Source: Parazoarcus communis (lineage in GTDB: Bacteria; Pseudomonadota; Gammaproteobacteria; Burkholderiales; Rhodocyclaceae). Taken from it: a stretch of 64,000 nt of DNA. Of the stretch, positions 52,463 to 60,580 are shown piece by piece. The DNA is taken from NCBI RefSeq assembly GCF_003111645.1, contig NZ_CP022187.1, positions 1,550,001 through 1,614,000 of the forward strand. Direction: 5' to 3'. The notes under the pieces were generated by a model. The model worked only from the letters and a program-made list of their open reading frames with translations. It was not told the DNA's origin and did not search any database. Both the position numbers and the translations under genes were made by a program. Every line of letters begins with the position of its first letter. The stretch's first letter is position 1.

Positions 52463-54362
<1,900 letters not shown>

Positions 54363-54366
<4 letters not shown>

Positions 54367-54710
54367 TGCGCCCCGCAGAGCGCAGGGACACGCCTGCTGA
54401 CACATCCGGACACCCAGACGGGAACACACCTGCAGCGTCCCGTCGCGAAGCGCTCAACGACGCGGTGGACAAGGACGTCGCCCGCATCGAGAAGGGCGAG
54501 CGCGAGCGTCGCAGCGTGCTCGGCTATACCGTGTTCATGGGCACCATCGCCGGCCTGTTCGTGCTGCCGGTGGTCGGCGGCGCCTATCTTGGGCGCTGGC
54601 TCGACGGCCTTGCCGAAGGCTATTCGGTGCGCTGGACGGTGAGCCTGATCCTGCTCGGCGTGGTCATCGGCGGCATCAACGTCTATCGCTATCTGGAGGA
54701 GCACCCATGA
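54363..54710 (+). CDS. atpQ: N-ATPase AtpQ (AtpI-like) membrane protein
   Basis: This 115-aa protein has a charged N-terminal tail (about residues 1-52) and two TM helices (YTVFMGTIAGLFVLPVVGGAYLGRWL and WTVSLILLGVVIGGINVYRYL). This matches the AtpQ/AtpI-type ATP synthase gene-1 family, thought to help c-ring assembly or Mg2+ handling. Its ATG overlaps the epsilon stop. Confidence 0.82.
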
Positions 54711-54739
54711 ACGCCCGATTTCCGGCACCGACCAACTGA
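54707..54739 (+). pseudogene. 10-codon frame at the atpR position (probable remnant)
   Basis: An ATG overlapping the atpQ stop as ATGA, with GGAG upstream, opens a frame of only ten codons (MNARFPAPTN) before TGA. atpB begins 7 bp later. In N-ATPase operons this is where atpR, a small membrane protein gene of roughly 250-300 bp, is found. The frame looks like the preserved start of a deleted atpR, or a coupling peptide. Confidence 0.6.
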
Positions 54740-54746
54740 GCCGATC

Positions 54747-55436
54747 ATGGATACCGAATCGATCATCTTCACCATCGGCCCCCTGGCGATCACCCGCCCG
54801 GTGGCCACGACCTGGGCGGTGATGCTCGGCCTCACAGTGCTGTGCGCGCTTGCGACCCGGCGCCTGAAGCTCGACCCCGGCCCCTTCCAGACCCTGCTCG
54901 AGGGAATCGTCGGCACCATCCACGACGCAATCGACGACACCCTGCCCGACTACGGCGTGCGTCTGCTGCCCTTCATCGGCACGCTGTGGATCTTCATTGC
55001 CCTTGCCAACCTGGTGGGCGTGCTGCCCGGCGCAAGTTCGCCGACGGGGGATCTCTCCACCACGGCAGCCCTGGCGATACTGGTGTTCCTGTCGGTGCAT
55101 TGGTTCGGCATCCGTAGCGAAGGGCTTCGCGCCTATCTCGCGCACTATGTTCAGCCCAGCCCGATCATGCTGCCCTTCCACATCATCAGCGAGATCTCGC
55201 GCACCGTGGCGCTGGCCGTGCGCCTGTTCGGCAACGTCATGAGCCTGGAGACCGCCGCGATCCTTGTGCTGCTGGTCGCCGGTTTCCTGGTGCCGGTGCC
55301 GGTGCTCGCCCTGCACATCGTCGAGGCGCTGGTGCAGGCCTACATCTTCGGCATGCTGGCGCTGGTGTACATCTCGGGCGGCATCCAGTCTCAGCAAACC
55401 CGATCATCCCGTATCAAGGCAGGAGTCTCTTCATGA
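54747..55436 (+). CDS. atpB: N-ATPase subunit a
   Basis: This 229-aa stator ion-channel subunit has the essential arginine R159 in ISEISRTVALAVRLFGNVMSLE, the universal L-F-G-N motif, FIGTLWIFIALANLVG and a C-terminal helix FGMLALVYISGGIQ. It contacts the c-ring to drive ion passage. It starts soon after the atpR remnant and overlaps atpE by 4 bp. Confidence 0.92.
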   Translation: MDTESIIFTIGPLAITRPVATTWAVMLGLTVLCALATRRLKLDPGPFQTLLEGIVGTIHDAIDDTLPDYGVRLLPFIGTLWIFIALANLVGVLPGASSPTGDLSTTAALAILVFLSVHWFGIRSEGLRAYLAHYVQPSPIMLPFHIISEISRTVALAVRLFGNVMSLETAAILVLLVAGFLVPVPVLALHIVEALVQAYIFGMLALVYISGGIQSQQTRSSRIKAGVSS

Positions 55437-55699
55437 ACGACATGACCTATTTCACCACGCTGTCTACGGTTGGCGCACTGTTTGCAATCGCGCTCGGCGT
55501 GTTCTTTCCGGCGCTGGCCATGGGCCGCGCCATCAGCCAGGCACTCGACGCAATTGCCCGCCAACCCGAAGCCGAGAAGTCCATCTCGCGCCTGCTCTTC
55601 ATCGGTCTGGCAATGATCGAATCGCTGGCCATCTATGTGCTGGTGGTGGTGCTCATCGTGCTGTTTCGCAACCCGTTGCTCGAATACCTGCTCAAGTAA
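55433..55699 (+). CDS. atpE: N-ATPase subunit c
   Basis: This 88-aa hairpin of two TM helices joins through the polar loop ARQPEA (42-47). The ion-carrying carboxylate is E63, followed by S64 (GLAMIESLAIYV). In Na+-binding c-rings a Gln or Glu stands in helix 1 where this protein has M30 (FPALAMGRAI), and Thr often follows E-S where this one has L65. The E-S pair and Y68 remain. The site may therefore prefer H+, although its close relatives are predicted Na+ pumps. Confidence 0.92.
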   Translation: MNDMTYFTTLSTVGALFAIALGVFFPALAMGRAISQALDAIARQPEAEKSISRLLFIGLAMIESLAIYVLVVVLIVLFRNPLLEYLLK

Positions 55700-55711
55700 G
55701 GACGACCGATC

Positions 55712-56461
55712 ATGCAACTGGACTGGACGACTTTCCTGCTCCAGATCGTCAATTTTCTGGTGCTGGTATGGCTGCTCAAGCGCTTCCTGTACCGGCCTGT
55801 GCTGGACGTGATCGCCCGCCGCCGCCAGGGAATCGAGAAGGCACTGAGCGACGCCCGCGACGCCGAGGCGCGCGCGGAAACCCTGCGTCAGGACTACGAG
55901 CGCAAGCTCGCCGAACAGGACAGCGCACAGGCAGCCGACATGGCCAGACTGGGAGACGAGATCGCAGCAGAACGCCGCCGCCTCATGGCCAAGCTCGATG
56001 CGGAACTGGCCGCAGAGCGCGAGCGCCAGGTTGCGCTTGTCGAAAAGCAGACGGCCGATGCCGGTCGCAAGGCAGGCGATACCGCACGCGCCGCCGCCCT
56101 GAGTTTCGTCAGCCGCCTGCTCGGCCGGCTGTCGGGCGCCGAGCTCGACTCCCGGCTTGTGGACATGCTCATCGAGGACCTCGCCACACTGCCTGCCGAG
56201 CAGCTCGAGGCCTTGCACGACGCTGCCGCTGCACCCGAGGCCAGCCTGCAGCTCACCACCGCGCGCGCCCTGAGCGAGGCCGACGAGTCGCGTCTGCTTG
56301 GCGCACTCGCGGATACGCTGGGCCGCAGCCTGCCGATCACGAAACAGATCGATGCATCCATGCAGTCGGGGCTGCGCGTTGGCATCGGCCCCTGGATGCT
56401 TGCCGCGAGCCTTGCCGACGAGCTGGCATTTTTCCGCTCGGGAGCCCGCCGTGCGTGCTGA
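55712..56461 (+). CDS. atpF: N-ATPase subunit b (extended, delta-like C-terminus)
   Basis: This 249-aa protein has one N-terminal TM helix ([20 protein letters not shown]), then a long coiled coil (about 30-130). The C-terminal region (about 135-240) resembles the delta subunit, including the late [36 protein letters not shown]. The operon has no separate atpH, so this extended b subunit would take over the delta role, as is usual in N-ATPases. Confidence 0.87.
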
Positions 56462-57926
56462 GCATCCTGATCCGCCCGCGCCAGCGGACAGCGCCAGCTA
56501 CAGCCCGCGCTTGCGCATCGTCGAGCGCGGCAAGGTGACTTCGGTCGGTGATGGCGTGGTGTGGATCGAAGGCCTGCCTTCGGCGCGCATGGATGGCATC
56601 GTCAGGATCTCGGACGGCAGCGAGGCGCTGGTCTTTCATCTCGCGCCCGACCGTATCGGCGCCATTCTGCTCACCACCACACCCGCGCTCATGCCCGGCT
56701 GCGAGGCACGCCAGTCCGGCGACATCCTCACCATGCCGACAGGCGACGGCCTGCTGGGCAGGGTCATCGACCCGCTGGGCATGCCACTCGATGGCGGCAC
56801 CGCGCCCGACTGCAGCGGCCGCCGCGCGATCGAGGGCGACTCCCCACCGATCATCGCGCGCGATTTCGTCGACCACCCGCTCTACACCGGCAGCAAGATC
56901 GTCGACACCCTGATTCCGATCGGCCGCGGCCAGCGCCAGCTGCTGATTGGAGACAACGGCACCGGCAAGAGCGCACTCGCACTGGACGCCGTCATCAGCC
57001 AGCGCGACCAGAACGTGCGCTGCCTCTACGTCATGATCGGGCAGAAGCGTTCGTCCGTCGTGCAGACCATCGACACCCTGCGTACCCACGGCGCACTCGC
57101 CTACACCACCCTCGTCGTGGCCGAAGCCACGGCCAGCACCGGCATCCGTTACCTGGCCCCATTCGCCGGCTGCGCGATTGCCGAAGAGTGGATGAACGCC
57201 GGCCACGACGCCCTGATCGTGTATGACGACCTCACCACCCATGCGCGGGCGTATCGCGAGCTGTCGCTGCTGCTGCGCCGCCCGCCGGGGCGCGAAGCCT
57301 ATCCGGCCGACATCTTCTATCTGCACGCACGGCTGCTCGAGCGCTCCACCCGCCTCAGCGCCGCCAACGGTGGCGGCAGCATGACCGCGCTGCCGATCGC
57401 CGAGACCGAGCAGGGCGAGATTGCGGCCTACATCCCGACCAACCTGATCTCGATCACCGATGGCCAGATCCACTTCGACAGCAAGCAGTTCGCCCGTGGC
57501 GTGCTGCCTGCCATCGACATCACGCGCTCGGTCTCACGCATCGGCGGCAAGGCCCAGCACGAGGCCATCAAGCGCGAAGCCGGGCGCATGAAGCTGGACT
57601 ACCTGCAGTTTCTCGAACTCGAAGTGTTCACCCGTTTCGGCGCCAAGCTCGAAGCGTCGATGGAAGCCCGTATCCGACGCGGACGACTGCTGCGCGACAT
57701 CCTCGCCCAGGACCGCCTCGACCCTCACAGCGCCCTCGACCAGCTCGCCTGGCTCATCGCCTGCAACGAGAAGCTGCTCGACGGACTCGACGATGGTGAG
57801 CTCGACACCGCGCTGCACCGCCTGCGCACCGGAGCGGCAGGCACTGGCCTCACGCTCGACAGCCCGCGCACCGAATGGCTGACGGCGGTGCGCGGCTGGC
57901 TGAGCACCACCGCCGAACAAGCATGA
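56451..57926 (+). CDS. atpA: N-ATPase alpha subunit
   Basis: This 491-aa F1 alpha subunit has Walker [11 protein letters not shown] (commonly GDRQTGKT in F1 alpha), [67 protein letters not shown] and [15 protein letters not shown]. It starts with GTG at 56451, overlapping atpF by 11 bp; GGGAG lies 8 bp upstream, and no suitable ATG precedes the conserved N-terminus. Confidence 0.93.
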
Positions 57927-58747
57927 GCAAACGCCGCGAGCTGGAGAACCATATCGACAGCCTCGCCGACATCGGCGAGCTGCTCGGCGCGATGAAGAAC
58001 CTCGCCCTCGTCGAGAGCCGCCGCATCAATACCTTCATCGATGCCCAGCGCGCCGCCGCCGACATCGTGGAACACACCCTGGCCGATTTCATTGCCGACT
58101 ATTCCGGCCACATTGCGCCCGCCGCCCCTCATGGCGAAGTCGTCTGCCTGATCGGTTCCGAGCGCGGCTTCTGCGGCGACCTCAACCAGCGCCTGATTGC
58201 TGCAGCAGAAAGCATCCGCGAAGACGCGCAGATCGTGCTCGTCGGCAGCCGCCTGGCCGACGCCTGGACCAGCGACTTCGCGGCCAGCATCCCCGGTGCG
58301 GGGTTTGCGGATGAGGTGCAGAACGTACTGGCAAGCCTCGTCGCTCAGCTCACCCCCTTGCTCAAGGGCGCACGCCCGTTCGGTCCGCCCGCACTCAGCC
58401 TGCTCTATCTGGCGGAAGGCGGCACAAAACACCATTCGCTGCTGCCCGCACCCGAGCCGCGCCGGGACGGGCCGCGTCGCACCCATGCACTGCAGCTGAA
58501 CCTGTCGCCGCAGGCGTTTCACGCCGGCCTGATCGACCAGTTTCTCGAAACCGCGCTCGGTGGCGCACTGTATGACGCACTGCTGCACGAGAACCAGCTC
58601 AGGCTCGAACACATGGAGCAAGCCGGCCACCGCATCGACGAACAGCTCGAAGAGCTTGGCCGGCGCAGCAACCGGGCACGCCAGGAGGAAATCACCGAGG
58701 AAATCGAGATCATCCTGCTGTCGAGCCTGGGCAGCAGGGAGCCCTGA
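57923..58747 (+). CDS. atpG: N-ATPase gamma subunit
   Basis: This 274-aa rotor shaft subunit has the N-terminal coiled coil [29 protein letters not shown], the central [15 protein letters not shown] fold and the C-terminal helix [47 protein letters not shown]. It is shorter and more divergent than housekeeping gamma, as expected for N-ATPases. Its ATG overlaps the alpha stop; it is the last gene of the operon. Confidence 0.9.
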
Positions 58748-58777: not shown

Positions 58778-60580
58778 TCAGAGGTCCAGTTGCAGCGCCG
58801 CGAGCCGGGAATACAGCCCGCCCTGCTTGCGCAGATCTTCCGGGGTGCCGGTTTCGACGACACGCCCGCCCTCCATCACCACAATGCGATCGACCTTCTG
58901 CACGGTGGCGAGGCGGTGGGCGATGATCAGCGTGGTGCGCCCCTCCATCGCGGCGTTCAGCCCCTGCTGCACGAGAATCTCGGATTCGGCATCGAGCGCA
59001 CTGGTGGCCTCGTCCAGCAGCAGCAGACGTGCATGCTTGAGAATCGCACGTGCAATGGCAATGCGCTGGCGCTGCCCGCCCGAAAGCCGCGTGCCGCGCT
59101 CGCCGAGGAAGGTCTGGTAGCCCTCGGGCAGACGGCCAATGAATTCATCCACCAGGGCCGCGCGCGCCGCCTGCATCACTTCTTCGTCGGTCGCATCCAT
59201 GCGCCCGTAGCGGATGTTCTCCAGCGCGTTGGCGGAGAAGATCACCGGGTCCTGCGGCACGATGGCGATGTCCTTGCGCAGATCGTGCAGACTGAGCTGG
59301 CGGATGTCCTGCCCGTTGATCAGCACGCTGCCGCCGGTTACGTCGTAGTAGCGCAGCAGGAGCTGGAACAGACTGGTCTTGCCCGCACCCGACGGCCCCA
59401 CCAGCGCAACGCGCTCGCCCGGACGGATGTCGAGGCTGATGTCGTCCAGCGCACGCACCTGCGGGCGACCGGGATAGGCGAACACCACATGATCGAGACG
59501 GATGCCAACCTGCGCTGCGGGCGCCGGCTGCTGGGGTTCGTCCTGCTCGCGAATGGCGGACTCCGCATGCAGCAGATCGAGCAGACGCTCGGTCGCGCCG
59601 GCCGCGCGCATCACGTCACCCCACACCTCCGCCATGGTCCCCACCCCGCCTGCCACCAGCGCCGCATACAGCACGAAGGAGGCCAGCTCGCCACCGGTCA
59701 TCAGGCCGTCGTGCACCTGACGCGCACCGATCCACAACACGAAGATGATCGTCCCCATCACCGCGGTGATGATCAGCGCAGTCAGCGCGGCACGCACCCG
59801 CGTGCGACGGATTGCAGTGACGAAGCTGGTTTCGGTGCGGTCTGAATAACGCCGCGCCTCTTCCTGCTCCTGGGTACAGGCCTGCACCGTGGGCATGGCA
59901 TTCAGGATCTCGCCGGCCAGCGCCGAGGTGTCGGCGATGCGGTCCTGCGATTCGCGCGACAGACGCCGCACCTTGCGCCCGATCACCATGATCGGCAGCA
60001 CCAGCAGGACCATCAGCACCAGGTTGAGCGAGAACAGATAGAAGCTGGTCACGGCCAGCATGATCATGCCGCCGATGAACTGGAACAGGCTACGCAGCCC
60101 CATCGAGATCGAACTGCCGACCACGGTCTGGATGAGCGTGGTGTCGCCAGTCAGACGCGACAGCACCTCGCCCGTCTGCAAGGTCTCGAAGAACTGCGGC
60201 GACTGCGACAGCACCCGCGCATACACCGCGTTGCGCAAGTCCGCCGTCGCCCGCTCGCCCACCCAGGACACGGTGTAGTAGCGCATCGCCACCGCCAGCG
60301 CCCACAGAAAAGCCAGCCCGAACAGGGCAACGAAGTGGCCGTTCAGACTCAGGGCGCCCAGCAGCCCCTGGCCCGCTGCCTCGCGGCTCTGCGCACCGAA
60401 GCCAAAGTCGATGAGATCGCGAAACGCCAGCGGAACGAGCAGGATGGTGCCCGACGCCACGCACAGCAGCACGAAGGCCAGCGCAATACGCACGCGGTAG
60501 GGACGCAGAAAAGGCCACAGCCCGCTCAGCACCGAAAGCCGCCGCGGGCCCTTCCCGGCATCATTCCGCGCCTGTTGCAT
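58778..60580 (-). CDS. ABC exporter, fused permease and ATPase (MsbA-like)
   Basis: This 600-aa half-transporter has six TM helices in the first 310 residues and a C-terminal nucleotide-binding domain. The domain shows Walker A GPSGAGKT, Q-loop VPQDPVIF, signature LSGGQRQRIAIARA, Walker B LLLLDEATSALD and switch AHRLAT. It should act as a homodimer exporting a lipid or drug-like compound; the substrate is unknown. It is co-directional with the gene at 60590 and starts about 10 bp after it. Confidence 0.9.
   Translation of the reverse strand: MQQARNDAGKGPRRLSVLSGLWPFLRPYRVRIALAFVLLCVASGTILLVPLAFRDLIDFGFGAQSREAAGQGLLGALSLNGHFVALFGLAFLWALAVAMRYYTVSWVGERATADLRNAVYARVLSQSPQFFETLQTGEVLSRLTGDTTLIQTVVGSSISMGLRSLFQFIGGMIMLAVTSFYLFSLNLVLMVLLVLPIMVIGRKVRRLSRESQDRIADTSALAGEILNAMPTVQACTQEQEEARRYSDRTETSFVTAIRRTRVRAALTALIITAVMGTIIFVLWIGARQVHDGLMTGGELASFVLYAALVAGGVGTMAEVWGDVMRAAGATERLLDLLHAESAIREQDEPQQPAPAAQVGIRLDHVVFAYPGRPQVRALDDISLDIRPGERVALVGPSGAGKTSLFQLLLRYYDVTGGSVLINGQDIRQLSLHDLRKDIAIVPQDPVIFSANALENIRYGRMDATDEEVMQAARAALVDEFIGRLPEGYQTFLGERGTRLSGGQRQRIAIARAILKHARLLLLDEATSALDAESEILVQQGLNAAMEGRTTLIIAHRLATVQKVDRIVVMEGGRVVETGTPEDLRKQGGLYSRLAALQLDL

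What the first reader, a model, noticed from the sequence alone, without database searches (positions are those of the whole stretch)
55433..55699. c subunit lacks the helix-1 Na+ ligand expected in an N-ATPase
Aligned on the A-R-Q-P-E-A loop, the Gln of Na+-type c subunits (Q32 in Ilyobacter tartaricus; Glu in the Burkholderia N-ATPase as I recall it) is M30 here. The Thr that often follows E-S is L65. E63, S64 and Y68 are kept. This predicts weak or no Na+ binding and possible H+ coupling. It coincides with loss of atpR, so the two changes may be linked.
Basis: partly seen in the sequence, partly recalled or inferred. Interest (0 to 1): 0.7.

Follow-up and report, generated by a model that had tools for sequence, protein, structure and literature searches.

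The report
Proton-type N-ATPase ring subunit, clade-wide
The rotor-ring subunit in this extra ATP-driven ion pump really has lost the residues needed to hold sodium, but this is a fixed trait of a large and partly described subfamily of proton-type pumps rather than a change in this one organism.

Summary
In detail: window 55433-55699 encodes an N-ATPase c subunit with M30, E63-S64-L65 and Y68, in an operon without atpR. It is not specific to this genome. In 86 of 86 related operons (84 distinct c sequences, minimum pairwise identity 60%) residue 30 is Met, residue 65 is Leu (one Met) and atpR is missing. In 41 operons with atpR, residue 30 is Glu (38), Gln (1) or Met (2). Subunit a changes too: all 86 carry His at the E. 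coli aH245 proton-channel position and 81 carry Glu at aE219; none of the 41 has that His. H+ coupling is the best explanation (inferred, not measured).

The proposed link to atpR loss is not supported: the traits coincide on one deep branch only, two Desulfobacterota operons have M30 and keep AtpR, and B. pseudomallei keeps Glu30 and atpR although its ring is H+-specific. The genome also holds a canonical N-ATPase with atpR and Glu30, and an F-type ATP synthase.

The same trait set was published for Nitrospiraceae in 2025, so this is a new member of a known kind. The subunit-a co-signature and the decoupled Desulfobacterota cases were not found in the papers I read.

The parts
52538..53971 (+). 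atpD, N-type F1 beta subunit
   Evidence: TIGR03305 (alt F1F0 beta) 606 bits, above F-type TIGR01039 575 bits but below the alt cut-off of 752
53968..54366 (+). atpC, epsilon subunit
   Evidence: PF02823 7.4e-11
54345..54710 (+). atpQ (AtpZ/AtpI-like, PF09527)
   Evidence: PF09527 1.7e-10; followed by 36 bp and then atpB, so there is no atpR
54747..55436 (+). atpB, subunit a; R159 (E. coli aR210), E168 (aE219), H190 (aH245), N163 (aN214), Q197 (aQ252)
   Evidence: PRK13420 349 bits (cut-off 272)
55433..55699 (+). atpE, c subunit with M30, E63-S64-L65, Y68
55712..56461 (+). atpF, b subunit with C-terminal delta/OSCP-like extension
   Evidence: PF00430 3.7e-10 and PF00213 (OSCP) 2.1e-06; TIGR03321 2e-42
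56451..57926 (+). atpA, alpha subunit (GTG start at 56451 inferred from the ATPase operon on the Sulfuricella plasmid)
   Evidence: PRK13343 669 bits; PF00006 2.2e-72
57923..58747 (+). atpG, gamma subunit (start inferred at [10 protein letters not shown])
   Evidence: PF00231 8.2e-27

Best explanation
This is the c subunit of an extra rotary ATPase of an atpR-less subfamily of N-ATPases, and its ring most likely carries H+. Each E63 carboxylate binds a proton in a mostly non-polar site. M30 takes the place of the helix-1 Gln/Glu that would give Na+ an oxygen ligand, and L65 takes the place of the Thr that would hold the coordinating water. Protons reach the ring through a subunit-a channel built with the E. 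coli set E219/N214/H245/Q252. With a separate F-type ATP synthase in the cell, the complex probably works as an ATP-driven H+ pump (pH or membrane-potential homeostasis). SHOWN: the residues, their fixation in the clade, the absence of atpR, the subunit-a signature, and three rotary ATPase operons in the genome. INFERRED: ion specificity, direction of operation and physiological role.
For: c M30 in 86/86 and L65 in 85/86 of the atpR-less clade, against Glu/Gln30 in 39/41 and Thr65 in 26/41 of atpR-bearing operons. The Na+ site of the F. nucleatum ring uses Glu32, Val63 O, Glu65, Ser66 and a Thr67-held water (PMC3692424); Met30 and Leu65 supply neither the helix-1 ligand nor the water anchor. 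The H+-type c subunits of E. coli and of this genome's own F-ATPase have Ile at the position of M30. Subunit a: His at the aH245 position in 86/86 against 0/41, and Glu at aE219 in 81/86 (Asp 1, Gln 4); simulations and mutants show aH245 is needed for H+ transfer in E. coli (PMC11121307). Across 127 N-type operons, a complete Na+ motif (E/Q30, S/T64, T65) goes with Gly at that position in 24/26, and an incomplete motif goes with H/D/E in 95/101. dN/dS is far below 1 and catalytic residues are intact. A c gene from a second ATPase occurs in 39/40 M30-type genomes. Published prediction of H+ for the same trait set in Nitrospiraceae (PMC12342949).
Against: No biochemical measurement exists for this clade that I could find. 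Ser64, Tyr68 and the backbone ligand are retained, so partial Na+ affinity cannot be excluded from sequence. Some F-type a subunits in the sample lack His at the aH245 position (6 of 8), so that residue is supportive and not diagnostic. aD119 is not conserved here (Gly or Ser). The counts reflect a few lineages rather than independent events. B. pseudomallei shows that sequence-based ion prediction in N-ATPases can fail.
Confidence: 0.85

Rival explanations
1. The complex is still Na+-coupled: E63, S64, a backbone carbonyl and water suffice, and Met30 only shields the site.
For: E63, S64 and Y68 are invariant in the clade. N-ATPases were originally predicted to be mainly Na+-selective (Dibrova 2010, cited).
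Against: Two of the Na+-coordinating groups seen in the F. nucleatum ring are gone. Subunit a has proton-relay residues that the Na+-motif N-ATPases lack.
Confidence: 0.1
2. Loss of atpR and loss of the helix-1 ligand are mechanistically linked: AtpR assembles or inserts only rings with a helix-1 carboxylate, so an M30 ring no longer needs it.
For: Perfect co-occurrence within the clade: 86/86 M30 without atpR against 39 atpR-bearing operons with E/Q30. 35 of 40 M30-type genomes have no AtpR at all.
Against: Two Desulfobacterota operons (L142, L143) have M30 and keep AtpR (PF12966 3e-23 and 1.5e-18), nested among atpR-bearing Glu30 operons (support 0.998). The co-occurrence in the large clade is one phylogenetic event, and other traits (a-His, c Arg79) changed on the same branch.
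Confidence: 0.1
3. The operon is a decaying duplicate that has lost atpR and ligand residues through relaxed selection.
For: A second, complete N-ATPase exists in the genome. Koumandou and Kossida suggested degeneration for some N-ATPase loci lacking subunits (PMC4154653).
Against: M30 and L65 are fixed across 84 distinct sequences (one L65M), dN/dS is about 0.03 for c, all eight genes are intact, and two congeners and other phyla carry the same set.
Confidence: 0.03

Closest known systems
atpR-less N-type ATPases of Nitrospiraceae (ISME J 2025, PMC12342949)
   Same: No Glu32, T67 replaced by Leu, no atpR, gene order D C Q B E F A G, PF09527 AtpQ, predicted H+
   Different: Described there only for Nitrospirales. 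Here in an Azoarcus relative, with the same set in 86 operons of several phyla; the Met identity and the subunit-a His/Glu signature are not mentioned in the passages read.
Burkholderia pseudomallei N-ATPase (c17, PMC5376962)
   Same: N-type gene order; c-ring predicted here, and measured there, to be H+-specific
   Different: Has Glu30, Thr62-Met63 and atpR; its H+ specificity arises with a two-carboxylate site
Canonical atpR-bearing N-ATPase, including the paralogue in this genome (L010)
   Same: Gene order and b-delta fusion; about 45-53% identity in beta, alpha, a and c
   Different: Has AtpR; c has Glu30 and Val65; subunit a has Thr and Gly at the aE219/aH245 positions
Nitrosococcus halophilus double N-ATPases (PMC4154653)
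   Same: Extra N-ATPases lacking atpR
   Different: c-subunit residues not reported in the text read

Membership tests
N-ATPase (Dibrova/Koumandou/ProAD sense) | Gene order beta-epsilon-...-a-c-b-alpha-gamma in one cluster | tested here: met
   D C Q B E F A G at 52538-58747
N-ATPase (Dibrova/Koumandou/ProAD sense) | No separate delta gene; b subunit with C-terminal extension or delta fusion | tested here: met
   249-aa b with PF00430 and PF00213 (OSCP); no separate delta ORF
N-ATPase (Dibrova/Koumandou/ProAD sense) | AtpQ (PF09527) between epsilon and a | tested here: met
   PF09527 1.7e-10
N-ATPase (Dibrova/Koumandou/ProAD sense) | AtpR (PF12966) in the operon, i.e. two extra genes between epsilon and a | tested here: not met
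   36-bp Q-B gap; no AtpR in 86 clade operons; the genome's only AtpR is in the other N operon
N-ATPase (Dibrova/Koumandou/ProAD sense) | Groups with N-type rather than F-type subunits | tested here: inconclusive
   N-type models outscore F-type ones for beta and alpha but below their cut-offs; trees were rooted with only two F-type operons, so N monophyly was not tested
N-ATPase (Dibrova/Koumandou/ProAD sense) | Found in addition to an F- or A-type ATPase | tested here: met
   three c genes in the genome; a second c gene in 39/40 M30-type genomes
Na+-translocating N-ATPase | Complete Na+ motif in c (Gln/Glu at 32, E65, Ser/Thr66, Thr67, Tyr70) | tested here: not met
   M30 and L65
Na+-translocating N-ATPase | Na+ transport or Na+ protection against DCCD | not testable with these tools
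   needs biochemistry
atpR-less, H+-predicted N-type subfamily (as in Nitrospiraceae, PMC12342949) | No Glu32, T67 to Leu, no atpR, gene order atpGAFEBQCD, PF09527 AtpQ | tested here: met
   Nitrospirota loci L041 and L075 fall in the same set

The most novel reading that the evidence does not exclude
N-ATPases fall into lineages whose ion choice is written in two subunits at once: a complete Na+ motif in c goes with Gly at the aH245 position, and each lineage lacking the full motif has its own titratable residue there (His in the M30 clade, Asp/Glu in the E-T-M lineage). The M30 clade would then be a distinct proton-pumping N-ATPase subfamily that assembles its ring without AtpR.
Probability: 0.5. 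Interest if true: 0.5.

Novelty: new member of a known kind. Interest (0 to 1): 0.33.

Why it matters
N-ATPases are often annotated as Na+ pumps and read as signs of salt adaptation. A large, patchily distributed clade cannot be read that way. The c residue-30/65 plus subunit-a His test is a simple two-subunit rule for sorting them, and the clade shows that AtpR is not generally needed for an N-type operon to be kept.

Tried and rejected
AtpR supplied in trans from the canonical operon: rejected as a general explanation, because 35/40 M30-type genomes have no AtpR. AtpR moved elsewhere in the operon or hidden in larger Q-B gaps: an iterated AtpR HMM found it in all 41 canonical operons used in the residue count (42 loci including L144, which has no c subunit) and in none of the M30 clade. 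Of the large gaps inspected, L045 holds an antitoxin-like ORF and the ORFs tested from L054, L066 and L095 match no Pfam family. Degeneration: rejected from dN/dS and fixation. Direction of change (loss versus gain of atpR): left open; the a+c tree and the beta+alpha+a ML topology put the clade sister to all atpR-bearing N-ATPases, the a-only tree joins it to one atpR-bearing group, and the basal node has SH support 0.28. The bootstrap run timed out, so no bootstrap values are given. Dibrova 2010 is not held. No structure was predicted, because a single c hairpin would not show the inter-subunit ion site.

Full report
OBSERVATION. The ORF at 55433-55699 (+) is an 88-aa c subunit with M30, E63-S64-L65 and Y68, in an intact operon D C Q B E F A G at 52538-58747 with 36 bp between atpQ and atpB. 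The operon is N-type by gene order, by AtpQ (PF09527) and by a b subunit carrying a delta/OSCP-like C-terminus. NCBI's 'alternate F1F0' models outscore the ordinary F-type models for beta and alpha but stay below their cut-offs, while PRK13420 (subunit a) and PRK13343 (alpha) are exceeded. It is therefore a divergent subfamily.

THREE ROTARY ATPases. The genome has three c genes: this one; a canonical N-ATPase at C1:1.083-1.096 Mb with AtpR (PF12966 2.3e-24), whose c has Glu30 and E-S-V; and an F-type at 3.33 Mb whose c has Ile at that position. The two N-ATPases are only 45-53% identical in beta, alpha, a and c. Within the genus the M30 operon is patchy: found in G000, G001 and G002 but not in G003 or G004.

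CLADE-WIDE TRAIT. A genome-collection search with subunit a gave 245 related stretches, of which 80 loci were fetched: Rhodocyclales, Nitrosomonas, Methylobacter, Marinobacter, Microbulbifer, Legionella, Acidithiobacillus, Nitrospirota, Desulfuromonadales and others. With additional loci, 86 operons without AtpR were analysed. Residue 30 is Met in 86/86, residue 65 is Leu in 85/86, and residue 29 is Ala in 86/86, across 84 distinct c sequences whose pairwise identity goes down to 60%. The same operon lies on a plasmid of Sulfuricella denitrificans. In 40 whole genomes carrying it, 35 have no AtpR anywhere and 39 have at least one further c gene.

COMPARISON SET. 41 atpR-bearing N-ATPase operons with a c subunit, from chromosomes and plasmids, have Glu30 (38), Gln30 (1) or Met30 (2). 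The two Met30 exceptions, L142 and L143 from Desulfobacterota, have AtpR by Pfam (3e-23 and 1.5e-18) and nest with Glu30 operons (0.998). The helix-1 change to Met therefore happened at least twice, once without loss of atpR. The large M30 clade is monophyletic (0.90 on a+c; 0.98 on beta+alpha+a; only 0.55 on a alone), so its coincidence with missing atpR is a single event and carries no statistical weight for a link. Whether atpR was lost in this clade or gained by its sister is not resolved.

SUBUNIT a. Aligned to E. coli, the M30 clade has His at the aH245 position in 86/86 and Glu at aE219 in 81/86 (Asp 1, Gln 4), with aN214, aQ252 and aR210 invariant; no atpR-bearing operon has that His. 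In E. coli, aH245 transfers protons and small-residue replacements abolish function (PMC11121307). Across all 127 operons, a complete Na+ motif in c goes with Gly there in 24/26, and an incomplete one goes with His, Asp or Glu in 95/101. These are few lineages, so the numbers describe a pattern and do not give a test. Caveat: most F-type a subunits in the small comparison (6 of 8) also lack His there.

MECHANISM. The Na+ site of the F. nucleatum ring uses Glu32, the Val63 carbonyl, Glu65, Ser66 and a water held by Thr67 (PMC3692424). Met30 and Leu65 remove the helix-1 ligand and the water anchor. With the subunit-a proton relay, H+ coupling is the best explanation (0.85). Pump direction and physiological role are inferred from the presence of a separate F-type ATP synthase.

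LITERATURE. The same trait set (no E32, T67 to Leu, no atpR, predicted H+) is reported for Nitrospiraceae (PMC12342949). ProAD classes 893 of 1807 N-ATPases as H+-specific by c motif (PMC11738941). The B. pseudomallei ring, with Glu30 and T62-M63, is H+-specific in vitro (PMC5376962), so Glu30 alone does not imply Na+. The finding is thus a new member of a known kind. The extent of the clade, the a-subunit signature and the M30-with-atpR operons are additions that I did not find in the papers read; Dibrova 2010 was not available.

Noticed in passing
window 54747-55436 (subunit a H190, E168): Subunit a carries the E. coli proton-channel His (aH245) and Glu (aE219) equivalents; the His is in 86/86 of the M30 clade and 0/41 of atpR-bearing N-ATPases.
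   Followed up: yes
L142 and L143 (extended as L176, L177): Desulfobacterota N-ATPases with M30 and E-S-I in c that keep AtpR: an independent change of the helix-1 ligand.
   Followed up: partly
window c subunit residue 79 (Arg): Arg or Lys at position 79 near the end of helix 2 in 85/86 of the M30 clade, Ala in 39/41 of atpR-bearing N-ATPases; meaning unknown.
   Followed up: no
L045 5223-6000, L081 2882-6000: Insertions between atpQ and atpB in Methylococcales relatives; L045 carries an antitoxin-like ORF (MazE, Pfam 1.1e-06), and neither holds AtpR.
   Followed up: partly
L166 1303-2532: Acaryochloris plasmid N-ATPase operon has a cation:proton antiporter gene inserted between atpQ and atpR.
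   Followed up: no
L164 (Sulfuricella denitrificans plasmid pSCD): An atpR-less M30-type operon on a plasmid, a possible vehicle for its patchy distribution.
   Followed up: no
window 58778-60580 (-): MsbA-related ABC transporter convergent with the ATPase operon, immediately downstream of atpG.
   Followed up: no
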